The notes under the pieces are model-generated. The model saw nothing but the letters and a program-made list of their open reading frames with translations, was not told the DNA's origin and did not search any database. A stretch of DNA of 64,000 bases from Microbacteriaceae bacterium PS02070 (lineage in GTDB: Bacteria > Actinomycetota > Actinomycetes > Actinomycetales > Microbacteriaceae). Every line of letters begins with the position of its first letter. Within the stretch, counting starts at the first letter, position 1. Both the position numbers and the translations under genes were made by a program. Shown here one piece after another: positions 3,069 to 10,357 of the stretch. Where the stretch lies: NCBI GenBank assembly GCA_029959865.1, contig JASCPE010000001.1, positions 496,001-560,000 on the forward strand. The letters are read 5' to 3'.

Positions 3069-3431
3069 TCAGCTTCTCTCTTGTGGGGTCGGGGTGGACG
3101 GCGTTTCTGCCAGGAGTGCGTCGAGTCGGGATATCCGGGCACGCCACAGGTCCTCGTACTGAGAAAGCAGTGCGCGGGCGCGGGCGATCATGGTCGGATC
3201 AGCCCGCACGAGGCGCTCGCGGCCCTCGGCACGCTTGACGATGAGGTGGGCCGCTTCCAGCACCGCCACGTGCTTCTGCACCGCCGCGAACGATATGTCG
3301 TACTCCGCCGCGAGGGCCGACACGGAGCGCTCCGCCTCAATCGCGCGCCGCAGGATGTCGCGACGAGTCGACGCCGCCAACGCATGAAACAGGCGATTCG
3401 TCTCATCTTCTGTCAGTTCTTCTACAACCAT
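3069..3431 (-). CDS. ArsR-family winged-helix regulator
   Basis: A 120-residue ArsR/SmtB-like repressor. The helix-turn-helix spans about residues 15-75 (HALAASTRRDILRRAIE, then DISFAAVQKHVAVLEAAHLI). No cysteine cluster typical of metal sensing is visible, so it probably senses something other than metal. The gene appears leaderless: the ATG at 3431 is 8 nt after a strong -10 box, and a near-perfect palindrome overlaps the start codon, which points to autorepression. The downstream SRPBCC gene is in the same transcript. Confidence 0.9.
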   Translation of the reverse strand: MVVEELTEDETNRLFHALAASTRRDILRRAIEAERSVSALAAEYDISFAAVQKHVAVLEAAHLIVKRAEGRERLVRADPTMIARARALLSQYEDLWRARISRLDALLAETPSTPTPQERS

Positions 3432-3440
3432 TTGGTTGTA
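3423..3440. promoter_or_regulatory. ArsR operator palindrome over the start codon
   Basis: TACAACCA-TT-TGGTTGTA: two perfectly inverted 8-bp arms around a TT centre. It covers the ATG at 3429-3431 and touches the -10 box at 3440-3445. Position and symmetry fit an operator bound by the ArsR product to block its own leaderless transcript. The link is inferred from position only. Confidence 0.65.
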
Positions 3441-3468
3441 CGTTAGGTCTTCTCGGTCGCCATGTCAA
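3440..3468 (-). promoter_or_regulatory. Promoter of arsR-SRPBCC operon
   Basis: On the minus strand TTGACA (3463-3468) and TAACGT (3440-3445) are exactly 17 bp apart, the best sigma-70 match in the window. The -10 box is 8 nt from the ATG, so the transcript is expected to begin at or within 1-2 nt of the start codon. Confidence 0.75.
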
Positions 3469-3694
3469 GACCTCCCTTGTCGGGAAGTGCTTGGGATGAC
3501 ACAAAGCGGCCAACCTTCAGGGCAAGCTCGAGCGGACGTCTTCGCGAAGGCTCAGTTCCTCTACGCAAAGGCCAGGCATGATCTCTTCCCGGCGCCTGGA
3601 TCGTCGGCGAGCAAGAAGCGGAGCAGCGTGCGCGCAATCAGCTTTCCGTAGGCCGACGAGCACTGCTTCCCGTAATCGGTGCCTGTGGGCCGCG

Positions 3695-5974
3695 TTACAG
3701 ACCTTCGGCTGCGAGAGCTGACATGAGGTTTGCCCCAACTTGGACGCGGTCGACCGCATCCAGCATGCAGCGTTCGCCGGCACGCTGCGGAACCGGCATC
3801 AAGCCATCACGCACTCCCAACGTGGAAGCGACCCTTGCGAGAGCCTCCTGATGCTCGCACCCGGTCGGCGGCGCGATCTCGTACCCGTCCGCCCGGCACC
3901 TGAGTCGCGTGCCGGATCGACGAAAAGTCAACCATCGCTCGCCCCATTCGTAGCCGGTGAACCACGGGTCCTCTGCGAGATCGCCGATCCGACTTTCTCG
4001 CCATGCTGCGAGTAGGTAAGGGTCGCGGTAGTAGCTGTTGAGTTGGGACTTGTTGAGCATGCAGAGCGAGTAGCCAAGCTCGCCGGCACGTCCAAAGTAG
4101 ATGCCCGACTTGCCCTCACGCATGGAGTCGTACTTGGTGAGGTAGTAGCGCCAATCGAACTTTCCCTCGATTTCGGCTTCTCGCAAGCCGCGACTCCGAA
4201 GCGCGCTCAATCCCGCTTCAACAGTCTCAGCAGGCGCCACGTGATCGAGCACTGCTCCTAACGCCTCGCGAGTTTGCGAGAGTGCATCACGGTTTCCGAC
4301 CGCGAGTACGGCGCGCCAGGAGGCGAGATTGCCATCCTGTCCCACTCCGAACTGGAACGATCTGCGCTCCCTATCTCGTGGGCGAGCGTATGGAGCCACT
4401 GCGAGTAGCGCAGCGGTCAATTGGGTCCAGTTCGCTGCGTCGCCGAAGGCACGGATGAATGCTTCCGCGCGCCTCGGTAGCGCGTAAGGATCGAGCTCGA
4501 AAGCAACGAGTGAGCCTCGAAGGATGACCGTGTCCTCCAGAGCGAACAGCGAGGACTCCATTTCGGGATAGGCGGCGCGGATGCGCGCCTTCAGGAGCTC
4601 ATCGTCGAACTGAGCGCGATTAAACGCGGTGGCGTCGTCAGTCAAGCCATCCACCGCGATCCGCTCGACCTCAGCAAGCATGGCGGGCATTCTGTCGAGC
4701 CGGATCTCGTTTTCGGACGCGTCGATCAGGTTGCGAATCACGCGTAGGCGTTCCCGCAACTCCCTACCTGCCTCAGTCGACACCGAACGGCGATAGGCGA
4801 GGACTGCCCCTAGGAGCAGTTGCTGCCCGAATGAGAATAGTCGCGTTGATCCCCGGCTCTCTCCGTAGGTGAGTACGCAGTTCTCAAAGAGGTCAGTGCG
4901 TCCTTCGGTAGCGGCGAACAACGGCATCGGTCCGCCTGATGTGCGGACTGCGCGGCCGCTTATGAACAGTTGGCTGAAGTATGCCGACGGATCCGCCCCA
5001 GTCCACGTGTCGAATGCATCGATGACGTAAGCAAGGTGATCACGAGCCCTCGGGTTGTGCTCATCGAAGAGCTTCTCGGCGCGCGGCTCAATCGGCCCCT
5101 GCTTGATGTGACCCTCTTTCCACTCGCAGATCTCGATGAGAAATTTTAGGTAGCGCAACAGCTCGTCATCGATGATGTCGTCGTCGCCACGATAGGGCCA
5201 GAAGGGGTCTGCCCACGCGCCGTCGATCCGATGCGCGAAGGTTTTCCCAGGGTCGATTGGTGCAATGTCGGCCTCGAGCCGGGCCTTGAAGTTCTCGAAC
5301 GGCGTCAGGGGCTTACCGCGCGAGTTCATTTTGATGTAGAGATCTTCGGGTGCTCCCATCTCATTGATGGGCAGCAGATGGAAGGAGACAGCAGGGCGAT
5401 CAGCGTCTGCGATCCGATGCCAGAGTTGAGCCGCGTCCTCGTCACCGAATCGCTGATGGATGCTCTCGATCATCGTGAGCATCGATTGAATAGTCGGATC
5501 GTGACGCCAGACGTACTGATACCACGACTGGTCTCGGATCCAGTCGGTGGGAGCTTCGCAGTCGACCGGCGGGGGAAACCCGACCAACCGCGCGCAGAAC
5601 AGCCGTGCACTTGCACGCGTCGCGTAAGTGAACTCGGTCCACGCTTGCGACGCGAGATCGACTCCTGCCCGATGCGCGAGATACCAATGGAGTAGAAACA
5701 GCGTGGTGAGCCGTTGCTGGCCGTCGAGCGGTCGCAGAGTGCCGCTGTCCGTCTCAACGTCCCCATAGACGAAATCCAGACCGATCTCTTGCGGTTCGTC
5801 TGCAGTTAGCGCTGAGTGGAGTACCTCCAGGAAGGCCGAACGAATCTGCGAGGTGGCCGGATCCGTTCGTCCTTGCGCGTAGTCACGCTGGATGAGTGGG
5901 ATTTCCACTCGCTTGATTGCCCCGTCTGCGCCACCTATCAACTGCGCGAAGGTCGTAACGCGGCTCTCAGTCAT
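3695..5974 (-). CDS. DUF262 protein, second gene of a GmrSD-like pair
   Basis: A 759-residue protein with an N-terminal DUF262 (ParB-like NTPase, GmrS-type) domain. The motifs IQRDYAQGR (28-36) and DGQQRLTTL (84-92) are intact, as is a later MNSRGKPLTPFE motif typical of the family. No HNH/DUF1524 EHI motif is visible in the long C-terminal half, which I do not recognise. The start at 5974 has an AGGAG site and lies 8 bp inside the end of the upstream DUF262 gene. DUF262 proteins occur in modified-DNA restriction (GmrSD, BrxU, SspE). This one probably works with its partner as a defence module; biochemical role unknown. Confidence 0.82.
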   Translation of the reverse strand: MTESRVTTFAQLIGGADGAIKRVEIPLIQRDYAQGRTDPATSQIRSAFLEVLHSALTADEPQEIGLDFVYGDVETDSGTLRPLDGQQRLTTLFLLHWYLAHRAGVDLASQAWTEFTYATRASARLFCARLVGFPPPVDCEAPTDWIRDQSWYQYVWRHDPTIQSMLTMIESIHQRFGDEDAAQLWHRIADADRPAVSFHLLPINEMGAPEDLYIKMNSRGKPLTPFENFKARLEADIAPIDPGKTFAHRIDGAWADPFWPYRGDDDIIDDELLRYLKFLIEICEWKEGHIKQGPIEPRAEKLFDEHNPRARDHLAYVIDAFDTWTGADPSAYFSQLFISGRAVRTSGGPMPLFAATEGRTDLFENCVLTYGESRGSTRLFSFGQQLLLGAVLAYRRSVSTEAGRELRERLRVIRNLIDASENEIRLDRMPAMLAEVERIAVDGLTDDATAFNRAQFDDELLKARIRAAYPEMESSLFALEDTVILRGSLVAFELDPYALPRRAEAFIRAFGDAANWTQLTAALLAVAPYARPRDRERRSFQFGVGQDGNLASWRAVLAVGNRDALSQTREALGAVLDHVAPAETVEAGLSALRSRGLREAEIEGKFDWRYYLTKYDSMREGKSGIYFGRAGELGYSLCMLNKSQLNSYYRDPYLLAAWRESRIGDLAEDPWFTGYEWGERWLTFRRSGTRLRCRADGYEIAPPTGCEHQEALARVASTLGVRDGLMPVPQRAGERCMLDAVDRVQVGANLMSALAAEGL

Positions 5975-7703
5975 CTTCGTCTCCTGTCTCGACGGCCAAG
6001 CCTGGAAGGAGATAGGGGCCGAGTGCATCCAGGATGGCTTCCAGGTACGCCTGCCTGTCCACCATTCCCCAGAAGTGGAGCTGTTGATCGGCGTTCGGTG
6101 TGTAGTACTTCAGGAATACGTTCCGCGTGCAGGCCGGTATGTAGCTGCCGCCCTTGTCGCGGCGAAGAATCTCCTGGCGCTTGACCTCAAAGACAGAGTT
6201 GCTCAGCGCGCTGTTCGAGCCGGAGTCGAGGAGGGCGAGATTGGTAATGGAGTGGATGTCCACGTCTGAGCTCTCGCCGAGCGCTGCTACGACCTTCGCC
6301 TCTATCCCACGGAAAGCACTCTCCACGAGTTTCGATGAGTTGAGGGCGACGTCGATCTCGGCTTCGAGGCTCTGCCTGAGAGAGGCCGAAATCGAGGGAA
6401 CCGCCGAGATGGCACAGCGGTGAAGGCGAAGCCACTCGAGCCACTGGTCCTGCCGGGTGAGTCTCTCAGCACTCTGTGCATGGATGTGCTCCAGAGACCA
6501 TCGTTCTTCAGCGTGAGCATGAAACGAATAGCGCTCCGACGATGAACTCTGCCGGCGCACCGTCTCGACGTTCATCAGCACAAGCGCGCGTTCGGATCGA
6601 ATCGCGCTCCTTCCCTCATAGTTGAGTTCTCGAACGCCCTCCTCCGAGAGTGACAGATGCGCGCTGATTCGATCGATGAGAGCCGCGTCAAATTCGCTCT
6701 TCGTCTTTTCCATCGACATCGCGACGATATGGGCAAGGTCATCACCAGCACTCACGAGGAAGCCGACTCTGTGAAATACATCGCGGTCTTCGTACCAGCC
6801 GGTGATGAGCGAATGAAGATCCAGTACGCGTTCCCATACCTGGAGAGGAGCTGCGTCGATATCAGGTCGCAGTGTCTCGAATGTGTGAAACAGTGGGCGG
6901 TCACGCCCGGTCGGACCGCCCACAATGACGTCGAGCAAGAGGCTGATGTGAGTCGAATCCGCGCGCTTTCCCGCAGTTATGAAAGCCCACAACTCGGGGT
7001 TGCGGAGATCGCGCTCGATCGAGTCCCACTGGGCCGCAACCTCGAATGATCGGCCCCGTGACGGTGCAGCTGCCTCGACCTTGGACAGCAGGAGAGCCTT
7101 TACGAGTTCCGCGTCCGTGAGGGGAATTCGACCAACGTTTAGCCTTCGGAAGACTGTCGCCGAATCTGTCTCTGCCGGAGCTTCGTACCAAATGATCCGC
7201 ACCCGCTCGAAGAAATAGCCGTAGAGCTTGTTGGCGACGAACTGGCGACGCGCCCCGTGCGCCTTGAACCAAGCCGCGACTGCTCCGTAGGCGCCGGCCA
7301 GGTGAAACGCATCGATGTTTGATCCTGGTTTGATTGCAGCGGGATCGGCGAGATACTCGAGCATTTCCGGGCGTGTCTCGTAGTCAAGGGAATAGGGCGG
7401 AGGCGTGCTCTGAAGCGACTCGTTTCGCATGTAAGCGAGGATTAGGAAGAGCGTCGTCAATCTTTGCTGACCCTCGATCAACTCCCAGCGATCGTCGCCT
7501 GGCATCGCCTTGACGACGACCGGCTGAAGGTAATACGACGGTTGGTCGCTGTTCCACAGGTCGTCTAGGAGCCGTTCGACTTCTTCGCGACCCCACCGGT
7601 ATCCGCGCTGATAAGCCGGAACCCAGAAGCGTTCCGCTATGTCGCCGACGTAGCGCTCACGCAACGCAGAGTCTGCAGTTTCCTGTGGCAACCCAGCCCC
7701 CAT
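5967..7703 (-). CDS. DUF262-DUF1524 fusion, GmrSD-like nuclease
   Basis: A 578-residue protein with the GmrSD layout in one chain. The N-terminal DUF262 domain carries YQRGYRWG (31-38), EGQQRLTTL (77-85) and VFRRLNVGRIPLTDAELVKA. The C-terminal DUF1524-like His-Me/HNH region has SLEHIHAQ (403-410) and the later N-L...SNSVFEVKR signature near 485-505. Related fusions hydrolyse nucleotides and cut modified or unmodified foreign DNA. It is the first gene of a two-gene operon with a second DUF262 protein. No clear ribosome site precedes the ATG at 7703, so the start is less certain. Confidence 0.85.
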   Translation of the reverse strand: MGAGLPQETADSALRERYVGDIAERFWVPAYQRGYRWGREEVERLLDDLWNSDQPSYYLQPVVVKAMPGDDRWELIEGQQRLTTLFLILAYMRNESLQSTPPPYSLDYETRPEMLEYLADPAAIKPGSNIDAFHLAGAYGAVAAWFKAHGARRQFVANKLYGYFFERVRIIWYEAPAETDSATVFRRLNVGRIPLTDAELVKALLLSKVEAAAPSRGRSFEVAAQWDSIERDLRNPELWAFITAGKRADSTHISLLLDVIVGGPTGRDRPLFHTFETLRPDIDAAPLQVWERVLDLHSLITGWYEDRDVFHRVGFLVSAGDDLAHIVAMSMEKTKSEFDAALIDRISAHLSLSEEGVRELNYEGRSAIRSERALVLMNVETVRRQSSSSERYSFHAHAEERWSLEHIHAQSAERLTRQDQWLEWLRLHRCAISAVPSISASLRQSLEAEIDVALNSSKLVESAFRGIEAKVVAALGESSDVDIHSITNLALLDSGSNSALSNSVFEVKRQEILRRDKGGSYIPACTRNVFLKYYTPNADQQLHFWGMVDRQAYLEAILDALGPYLLPGLAVETGDEDD

Positions 7704-8041
7704 TAAAAGTCGGCGGCGCGAGCTGCTGCCGCCCGCTATGACGATACTGGGAAGTGGGAGTCGACATCAGCACGCGGGCGAGCTCCCCGTCCTAGAGGAC
7801 ATTCCGCGATCGAATGAAGCGCACACCCACCGGCGCCAACGAAGAGTAGGAGACGAGGACGGAGCTGCTCGGTCCTGTCCGTCAAGAGAGGACGGGGCCC
7901 ATGCGACCACGCTGGCAAGGACGGTTCCCGGGTCAATAGGTGCGGTAGCCCCGCCCCCCGCCCCCGTCCGCACACCGTCGCCACCGGCACGGATAGGATG
8001 GGACGCATCCCCCGGCACCCCACGATTCGGAGTTCAGCCGC
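7704..8041. other. Intergenic region between DUF262 operon and purL
   Basis: 338 bp with no convincing gene on either strand. It must hold the divergent promoters for the DUF262 operon and purL. A TAGGAT box at 7994-7999 (plus strand) is a reasonable -10 for purL, without a good -35. No repeat, tRNA end or integrase remnant that would mark an insertion point is visible. Confidence 0.5.
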
Positions 8042-10357
8042 GTGAGCACGCCCGTCGCAGACACCGTCGACAACGCCCTTTCAACGCCGGAGCGCGAGCA
8101 GCCGTATGCGGCGCTCGGCCTCAAGCCGGATGAGTACGAGCAGATCCGCGAGATCCTCGGCCGCCGCCCCACCAGCGGGGAGCTGGCGATGTACTCCGTC
8201 ATGTGGAGCGAGCACTGCTCCTACAAGTCGAGCAAGATCTACCTGCGCCGGTTCGGCGAGAAGGTCTCAGACGAGATGAAGACGCGCCTCATGGTCGGCA
8301 TGGGGCAGAACGCCGGCGTCGTCGACGTCGGCGAGGGCTGGGCGGTCACCTTCAAGGTCGAATCGCACAACCACCCGAGCTACATCGAGCCATTCCAGGG
8401 CGCCGCGACCGGCGTCGGCGGGATCGTGCGCGACATCATCTCGATGGGTGCTCGCCCCGTCGCGGTGATGGACCAGCTCCGCTTCGGCGCGATCGACAAC
8501 CCCGACACCGCCCGCGTCGTGCACGGCGTCGTCGGCGGCATCTCCTTCTACGGCAACTGCCTCGGCCTGCCGAACATCGGCGGCGAAACCGTGTTCGACC
8601 CGGTGTACCAGGGCAACCCACTCGTCAACGCCCTCGCCGTCGGCGTGCTCCGCCACGAAGACCTCAAACTCGCCAACGCGTCCGGCACGGGCAACAAGGT
8701 CGTGCTCTTCGGCGCCCGCACCGGCGGCGACGGCATCGGCGGCGCCTCGATCCTCGCCTCAGACACCTTCGCCGACGGTGGCCCGACCAAGCGCCCCGCA
8801 GTTCAGGTGGGCGACCCGTTCGCCGAGAAGGTGCTCATCGAGTGCTGCCTGGAGCTATACCAGGGCGACCTCGTCGAGGCGATTCAAGACCTCGGCGCCG
8901 CAGGAATCTCCTGCGCGACGAGCGAGCTGGCCGCCAACGGCGGATCCGGCATGCGCGTCGACCTCGAGCAGGTCCTGCTGCGCGACCCCTCGCTCACGCC
9001 CGAGGAGATCCTCATGAGCGAGAGCCAGGAGCGCATGATGGCGATCGTCGCACCCGACAAGCTCGATGCCTTCCTCGCCGTCACCGACAAGTGGGACGTC
9101 GAGACGAGCGTGCTCGGCGAAGTAACCGGCGACGGGCGCCTGGAGATCTTCTGGCACGGCGAGAAGATCGTCGACGTCGACCCCTCCACCGTCGCGGTCG
9201 ACGGCCCCGTCTACGAGCGCCCCGTCGCCTACCCGACCTGGATCGACGCGCTGCGCGACGACTCCGCCGCGGCCCTTCCCCGCCCCGACGACGCGGACGA
9301 CATCCGCGCTCAGTTCTTCGCGCTCCTGCAGAGCCCGAACCTCGCCGACACCTCGTGGATCACGAACCAGTACGACTACTACGTGATGGGCAACACCGCG
9401 CTGTCGTTCCCGGATGACGCCGGCATGATTCGCGTCGACGAGGAGTCCGGACTCGGATTCGCGATCGCGACCGACTGCAATGGGCGCTACTGCCAGCTCG
9501 ACCCCTATCAGGGAGCCCAGCTCGCCCTCGCGGAGGCGTACCGCAACGTCGCCGTCACCGGCGCGGTCCCGGCCGCGGTCACCGACTGTCTCAACTTCGG
9601 GAGCCCCGAAAACCCTGAGGTGATGTGGCAGTTCGGCCAAGCGGTCGACGGCCTCGCTGACGGCTGCCTGGAGCTCGGCATCCCGGTCACCGGCGGAAAC
9701 GTCAGCTTCTACAACCAGACCGGCGACACCCCGATCTTCCCGACCCCCGTCGTGGGCGTGATGGGCATCATCGACGACGTCGCCCGGCGCATCCCCTCGG
9801 GCTGGCAGGACGCAGGCGAGAACATCTACCTGCTCGGCGTCACCTCGAACGAACTCAGCGGCTCGCAGTGGGCAGCCACCGTGCACGACCACCTCGGCGG
9901 TCGGCCCCCCGCAGTCGACCTCGGCGCGGAACGCCGCCTGGCTGAGCTCCTCCACGCCGCCGGTCAGCAGTCGCTGATCTCCAGCGCCCACGACCTCTCC
10001 TCGGGTGGGCTCGCGCAGACGCTCGCCGAAGGCGTCATTCGCTTCGGCGTGGGCGCCCGCGTCTGGCTGAACGAGATCATCGAACGGGATGGCATCGACG
10101 CGGCCACCGCCCTGTTCTCCGAGTCCACCGGCCGGGTCATCGTGACGGTGCCCCGCGAGGACGACGTGAAGTTCCGAGGGCTGTGCGCGGGTCGGAACTA
10201 CCCCGTGCTGCGCATCGGCGTGACCGACCTCGCCCCGGGCGAAGAGGCGGCGCTCCAGGTGCAGGGCCTCTTCACCGCGCCGGTGAGTGAACTGCGCGGT
10301 GCGGCCCAAGGCACTCTGCCGGCCGCCTTCGGTGAGATCGTGCGGGAAATCGCATGA
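8042..10357 (+). CDS. purL: Phosphoribosylformylglycinamidine synthase subunit PurL
   Basis: A 771-residue small-type PurL, the ATP-dependent synthase subunit that turns FGAR into FGAM in purine synthesis together with PurQ (glutaminase) and PurS, which are not in this window. Visible hallmarks include [11 protein letters not shown] near the N-terminus, the [10 protein letters not shown] substrate motif, [10 protein letters not shown] in the first nucleotide site, and the second-half motif GNVSFYNQT. Length matches the family. The GTG start has a GGAG element about 10 nt upstream. Its stop overlaps the ATG of a very small membrane-protein gene. Confidence 0.97.

What the first reader, a model, noticed from the sequence alone, without database searches (positions are those of the whole stretch)
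3695..7703. Two-gene DUF262 operon resembling an uncharacterised defence system
Seen: a DUF262-DUF1524 fusion with an EHIH nuclease motif is followed, with an 8-bp overlap, by a second 759-residue DUF262 protein that keeps the DGQQR motif but has no HNH motif and an unrecognised C-terminal half. Hand counts of two 60-bp lines give 35 and 37 G+C (4681-4740, 6541-6600) against 41 in purL (8881-8940). Known: DUF262 and DUF1524 make up GmrSD, and related domains appear in BrxU and SspE restriction enzymes. Inference: one protein may sense nucleotide or DNA modification while the fused protein cuts, a split of roles not covered by those known systems.
Basis: partly seen in the sequence, partly recalled or inferred. 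Interest (0 to 1): 0.72.

Follow-up and report, generated by a model that had tools for sequence, protein, structure and literature searches.

The report
GrwAB-type phage defence gene pair
Two overlapping bacterial genes in this window very probably encode a two-protein enzyme that cuts phage DNA carrying unusual chemical modifications; the arrangement was described in 2025 as GrwAB, so this is a further example, in Microbacterium, of a recently discovered kind of phage defence.

Summary
Window 5967-7703(-) encodes a 578-residue DUF262+DUF1524 protein (A) and 3695-5974(-) a 759-residue DUF262 protein (B) with an unrecognised C-terminal part; they overlap by 8 bp. Every B relative found had an A-type gene just upstream: 17 of 17 plasmid records in six phyla (one with an IS element between), 15 of 15 viral-contig loci, 6 of 6 Microbacterium genomes. 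A and B co-diverge (r 0.95), and both are under strong purifying selection (dN/dS 0.07 and 0.09).

The reading as a novel split of roles fails. The same architecture, gene order and motif spacing were published in 2025 as GrwAB, a modification-dependent type IV restriction system; TgvAB (2024) is a related variant. I could not align to the Vibrio cholerae GrwAB sequence itself.

Added here: the pair is an insert of about 4.5 kb beside purL, with an empty site in a congener. In M. yannicii an intact HmaABC defence operon begins about 1.8 kb downstream; the window keeps a decayed HmaA scrap. B looks like a GmrSD protein whose nuclease end was replaced by about 300 residues of unrecognised fold. 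Verdict: new member of a known kind.

The parts
5967..7703 (-). gene A (grwA-like), 578 aa: DUF262 (GmrSD_N, residues 23-206), middle part, DUF1524 His-Me nuclease (EHIH 405-408, N488, N497)
3695..5974 (-). gene B (grwB-like), 759 aa: DUF262 (residues 21-233; QR 29-30, DGQQR 84-88, N217), a helical middle part that tentatively resembles SspE/DndI, C-terminal part (452-759) of unrecognised fold
5967..5974 (-). 8-bp overlap of A stop and B start (ATGACTGA): translational coupling likely (inference)
3530..3668 (-). decayed remnant of a hmaA helicase gene; an intact hmaA lies downstream of the pair in M. yannicii
   Evidence: blastn 75% over 122 bp (window 3530-3650) to L009 hmaA; HmaA profile match at window 3582-3668, E 3.5e-4 for one genome; intact hmaA identified
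3478..7939 (.). whole insert relative to the empty site (the two flanks abut in L091)

Best explanation
The pair is a GrwAB-type, heteromeric, modification-dependent (type IV) restriction system. Shown here: two intact, overlapping, co-inherited genes under purifying selection; both proteins carry a DUF262 NTPase site, and only A carries a His-Me (DUF1524) nuclease site; B matches SspE firmly in its DUF262 part and SspE/DndI tentatively in its helical middle, has no detectable nuclease and ends in a different domain. Inferred from GrwAB, TgvAB, BrxU and SspE: the two proteins form a complex in which the DUF262 domains bind and hydrolyse nucleotide and read hypermodified bases (sugar-modified hydroxymethylcytosine or 7-deazaguanine in the V. 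cholerae system), which licenses the DUF1524 of A to cut the invading DNA. Proposed here: B is a nuclease-less GmrSD paralogue standing in for the second protomer of a BrxU-like dimer, its C-terminal part serving as partner interface or as modification/DNA reader.
For: Linkage A-then-B in 17/17 plasmid records (13 opened; the other four from match coordinates; in L012 an IS3 element lies between), 15/15 viral-contig B loci, 6/6 Microbacterium genomes. Motif match to published GrwA (R81, H431, N521, N530) and GrwB (R86): here A has R81, H406, N488, N497, with the 9-residue N-N spacing in 16/16 A proteins aligned; B has R88. Mantel r 0.950 over 26 A-B pairs, 0 of 2000 permutations as high. dN/dS 0.067 (A) and 0.089 (B) against M. 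yannicii. B model: Z 12.9 to SspE 7drr over residues 1-221. Defence context: intact HmaABC and an integrase near the pair in M. yannicii, qatA about 4 kb from the Hymenobacter pair.
Against: No activity is shown for this pair. V. cholerae GrwAB sequences were not in reach, so homology to it rests on architecture, order and motif numbering. The natural target in Microbacterium is unknown. A-like genes without B exist: L121 (viral contig) and an A fragment with a stop in G162 (no B match there). The Prevotella and Segatella pairs are very distant (19-20% identity for B) and may be a different subtype. The B model is of modest confidence (mean pLDDT 65.6); its match to DndI over 2-451 has rmsd 11.6, and the match of the middle part to the SspE C-terminal fragment is only Z 6.6. 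Foldseek itself gave no PDB match at E<=0.001.
Confidence: 0.82

Rival explanations
1. A is a self-sufficient GmrSD/BrxU-like enzyme, and B is an inhibitor or regulator that keeps it in check (toxin-antitoxin-like), not a co-effector.
For: A has the complete DUF262+DUF1524 architecture, and an A-like gene occurs without B in one viral contig.
Against: In GrwAB both genes, and the DUF262 site of both, are needed for protection. Strong A-type matches (E<=1e-90) without B are rare in Microbacterium: 1 of 7, and that one is a fragment with a stop.
Confidence: 0.08
2. It is a member of the TgvAB subtype rather than GrwAB.
For: TgvAB is also a two-gene DUF262 / DUF262-DUF1524 system.
Against: TgvAB has the opposite gene order, and its DUF262-only protein differs from GrwB by the authors' account. 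A TgvAB-like Vibrio plasmid pair (L153; 447+637 aa, shorter gene first; so named by architecture only) scores 20 and 42 bits with the B profile, in the DUF262 region, against 926 for window B.
Confidence: 0.03
3. The pair is a decaying remnant without present function, like the HmaA scrap beside it.
For: The neighbouring hmaA is reduced to a scrap, and the pair is sporadic (6 of 295 Microbacterium genomes).
Against: Both frames are intact, and substitutions against the 88-89% identical M. yannicii copy are strongly purifying.
Confidence: 0.05

Closest known systems
GrwAB (V. cholerae WASA lineage, VSP-II variant; PMC12137116)
   Same: Two genes in the same order; A = DUF262+DUF1524 with R81 and an N-N pair 9 apart; B = DUF262 followed by a long part of unknown function, DGQQR Arg at 86 (88 here)
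   Different: Host is Microbacterium; no function tested; V. cholerae sequence not aligned here
TgvAB (V. cholerae VPI-2; PMC11411939)
   Same: Two-protein GmrSD-like system with one nuclease-bearing partner
   Different: Opposite gene order and a distinct DUF262-only partner
GmrSD / BrxU / SspE / DndI single-protein enzymes
   Same: A shares the full DUF262+DUF1524 architecture; B shares DUF262 and, tentatively, the helical part
   Different: Here a second, nuclease-less DUF262 protein goes with A
HEC-06 / HEC-05 (GmrSD-like proteins embedded in Hma clusters; known here only through a passage of PMC11411939)
   Same: A's best PADLOC match is HEC-06 (E 1.7e-26, best stretch residues 24-98), and in M. 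yannicii the pair sits near HmaABC
   Different: HEC-05/06 are said there to function independently; here there are two genes

Membership tests
GrwAB | Two adjacent co-oriented genes, DUF262-DUF1524 gene first | tested here: met
   conserved in 17/17 plasmid records (one with an IS element between), 15/15 viral B loci, 6/6 Microbacterium genomes
GrwAB | GrwA: QR, DGQQR, FxxxN motifs plus His-Me nuclease residues | tested here: met
   A: QR 32-33, EGQQR 77-81 (E in place of D), F185xxxN189, H406, N488, N497
GrwAB | GrwB: DUF262 with QR, DGQQR, FxxxN, then a long C-terminal part of unknown domains | tested here: met
   B: QR 29-30, DGQQR 84-88, Y213xxxN217 (Y in place of F); no PF07510 match at E<=1; no fold recognised for residues 452-759
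GrwAB | Sequence homology of B's C-terminal part to V. cholerae GrwB | not tested
   the sequence was not in reach: no Vibrio record was among the 17 plasmid records with B, and no Vibrio chromosome could be called up by name
GrwAB | Both genes needed for protection against phages with modified bases | not testable with these tools
   needs phage plating
TgvAB | Short DUF262-only gene first, nuclease gene second | tested here: not met
   order is reversed and B is 759 aa with a long extra part; TgvAB-like L153 compared
SspE / DndI (phosphorothioate-sensing) | Host carries ssp/dnd DNA-sulfur modification genes | tested here: inconclusive
   no DndB (PF14072) match in the own genome (2 of 14 control genomes ring); the other Dnd and Ssp families were not searched
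GmrSD/BrxU single-protein | Works as a single DUF262-DUF1524 protein | not testable with these tools
   A has the architecture, but its usual partner argues against it

The most novel reading that the evidence does not exclude
B's C-terminal 300 residues are a previously undescribed module that makes a nuclease-less GmrSD paralogue the obligate modification-reading half of a heterodimer. This part diverges fastest (dN 0.089, against 0.038 for the DUF262 part, in the window/M. yannicii comparison) yet stays under purifying selection, so it could tune the system to different phage DNA modifications, with the Actinomycetota clade reading one that V. cholerae GrwAB does not target.
Probability: 0.25. 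Interest if true: 0.55.

Novelty: new member of a known kind. Interest (0 to 1): 0.32.

Why it matters
It shows relatives of a very recently described two-protein restriction family in at least six phyla with strict linkage, gives an actinobacterial version for structural work, and places the pair near an Hma defence operon. The open question it helps to frame is why some GmrSD-type enzymes need a nuclease-less partner, and what the partner's C-terminal module reads.

Tried and rejected
NCBIfam had no family for either protein at E<=1. PADLOC 2023 matches only stretches; its copy is older than the GrwAB paper. phmmer of B against the PDB gave CcmA chains at E 0.004-0.005, taken as chance, and a DUF262 chain at 0.81; the profile did better (DUF262 chain 20yv 2.8e-7, SspE 6e-6). 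Foldseek with the full B model gave no PDB match at E<=0.001 (best BrxU, E 0.22); in BFVD two matches at E<=0.001, both named DUF262 proteins. The C-terminal model (residues 452-759, mean pLDDT 69.7) had no PDB match at E<=0.001 and none at Z>=5, and Pfam showed only weak matches (best E 0.047 among 11 members): inconclusive, since the alignment had only 11 rows. The promoter/terminator scan of 3400-8100 found nothing. P0001 has no match in the phage collection; its scan of genome contigs gave only M. yannicii, and its single-sequence scan of viral contigs nothing, while the alignment scan gave 14 loci. In a sample of 396 genomes of the phylum, 35 had a match to the B profile; only the own genome had a full-length one, the other 34 short DUF262-level ones. 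Rows dropped before counts: G014 and G056 (short matches) and viral locus L036 (scores higher with the A profile).

Literature: GrwAB was found by a full-text search for DUF262, DUF1524 and defense. Phrases such as 'two DUF262' found nothing; 'GrwAB' is in two papers of the library. Seen: PMC12137116 passages and section 11 whole; PMC12409362, PMC11411939, PMC10952713 and PMC4619093 passages only; all others as search listings. Payne and colleagues on Hma-embedded genes were not read, only met through PMC11411939.
Full report
What is there. On the minus strand, gene A (5967-7703, 578 aa) is followed by gene B (5974-3695, 759 aa), with an 8-bp overlap ATGACTGA. One detail: A's own NTPase motif reads EGQQR. 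The genome has no further GmrSD_N match beyond these two. The genus is named Microbacterium because G249, given as same genus, holds the contig that genome contigs calls M. yannicii (same length and 88% match).

The pair is a real unit. tblastn of B against 72,556 plasmid records found 17 records; two further B relatives used as queries returned 17 and 16 records of the same set. I opened 13 of the 17 and saw a DUF262 gene upstream of B in all 13, with an IS3-family gene between them in one, L012. ORF comparison gives A-type matches at that place in all 13, though in L011 the A gene is annotated as two overlapping pieces. For the other four records, sister strains of opened ones, the coordinates of A and B matches are adjacent. 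The opened records span Actinomycetota, Pseudomonadota, Bacillota, Bacteroidota, Campylobacterota and Spirochaetota. In viral contigs, 13 of the 14 loci carry B, all with A upstream (B is split in L029 and cut by the contig end in L032 and L035); the fourteenth, L036, is an A-type match. Two more B loci, L113 and L114, also have A upstream, in two frames in L114. In Microbacterium, B occurs in 6 of 295 genomes and A is adjacent in all 6. Conversely, strong A matches (E<=1e-90) in those genomes number 7, of which 6 have B; the seventh, G162, is a fragment with a stop and has no B match. One viral contig has an A-like gene without B. Distances among 26 A-B pairs correlate at r=0.950, and 0 of 2000 label permutations reach that; shared descent contributes to this.

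Selection. Against the M. yannicii pair, dN/dS by Nei-Gojobori is 0.067 for A and 0.089 for B, and 0.125 for B residues 451-759 (ratios from the dN and dS). So both genes, B's unknown part included, look maintained by selection.

Site and island. In G019 (L091) the purL side and the ArsR-like/AHSA1 side of this site abut, whereas the window has about 4.5 kb between them (3478-7939); L079 has 116 bp and L072 932 bp between the flanks (neighbour families). These 3 of 29 purL loci compared showed the same neighbour within the roughly 1.5 kb held on that side; the other 26 did not. Low G+C and GC3 agree with import. In M. yannicii, reading downstream from the pair, there is an unassigned 348-aa ORF and then, about 1.8 kb from B, HmaA, a 158-aa ORF, HmaB and HmaC (PADLOC E-values 0, 0 and 3.7e-259); a NUDIX gene lies next to the pair on the other side and an integrase about 1.9 kb away. 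DNA identity between window and M. yannicii covers window 3688-7756 (83.6%) and resumes at 3530-3650 inside hmaA (75% over 122 bp); the HmaA profile independently marks window 3582-3668, its five other matches in the genome being short stretches of larger ORFs elsewhere. The window therefore keeps the restriction pair and only a scrap of the Hma operon.

What B is. The B model (mean pLDDT 65.6) aligns by VIA-align to SspE over residues 1-221 (Z 12.9, rmsd 4.0, 200 aligned), to chain B of 9jfl, an entry titled DndBCDE-DndI, over 2-451 (Z 11.5, rmsd 11.6, 347 aligned), to the SspE C-terminal fragment over 223-488 (Z 6.6, a value that can be chance) and to BrxU (Z 4.8). Sequence profiles agree for the DUF262 part. 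I read B as a GmrSD-type protein in which the nuclease end is gone and a different part takes its place; the DUF262 match is firm, the helical middle tentative. The C-terminal part, folded alone, has helices followed by a small alpha/beta end and no recognisable relative; with 11 sequences this is weak evidence of a new fold.

Comparison with the known. PMC12137116 describes GrwAB: first gene DUF262-DUF1524, second gene DUF262 plus domains of unknown function, both required, with GrwA R81A, H431A, N521A, N530A and GrwB R86A abolishing protection. Phages hit include those with sugar-modified hydroxymethylcytosine and with 7-deazaguanine, and escapers change DpdA. The authors report 471 hits, in about 1% of genomes. 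The present A has R81, H406, N488 and N497, and B has R88; the 9-residue N-N spacing is seen in 16 of 16 A proteins aligned, while the H-to-N distance varies from 17 to 92 (90 in GrwA, 82 here). TgvAB differs in order and in the partner, and a TgvAB-like Vibrio plasmid pair matches the B profile only in its DUF262 region.

How it most likely works. Shown: architecture, linkage, selection, conserved active sites. Inferred from the published systems: nucleotide-dependent DUF262 pair, modification reading, DNA cutting by A. Proposed here: B as a nuclease-less stand-in for one protomer of a BrxU-like dimer (BrxU dimers as told in PMC10952713). The main weakness is that no V. cholerae GrwAB sequence could be aligned and nothing was tested at the bench.

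Verdict. Real, functional-looking, and already explained in kind: a GrwAB-type member in Microbacterium. Interest is modest; what remains open is the role of B's C-terminal part and the modification it reads.

Noticed in passing
window 3530-3668: Scrap of a hmaA helicase gene downstream of the pair; an intact HmaABC operon lies about 1.8 kb downstream of the pair in M. yannicii (L009, L094).
   Followed up: yes
L012 2986-8272 and L013 3247-8533: In two Paenarthrobacter plasmids the pair is interrupted by the same IS3-family gene (same protein accession) at different points, which suggests that the system can be lost on these plasmids.
   Followed up: no
L011 4276-6007: The A gene of the Paraburkholderia pair is annotated as two overlapping pieces, possibly a frameshift.
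   Followed up: no
L020 8333-10159: A third DUF262 protein gene lies on the opposite strand just after the pair on an Entomospira plasmid.
   Followed up: no
L015 2892-3800, L017 3031-3837, L021 2641-3552, L018 10226-11140: WYL-domain genes are annotated near the pair in 4 of the 13 plasmid loci opened, upstream in three of them; possible regulators of defence operons.
   Followed up: no
L121 781-2301: Solitary A-like protein of 506 aa in a viral contig, with a short H-to-N stretch in the nuclease and no B gene; the ORF at 5174-6835 looks by eye like a C5-cytosine methyltransferase.
   Followed up: partly
L153 2617-5866: TgvAB-like DUF262 pair (by architecture) on a Vibrio parahaemolyticus plasmid, followed by a relaxase gene.
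   Followed up: partly
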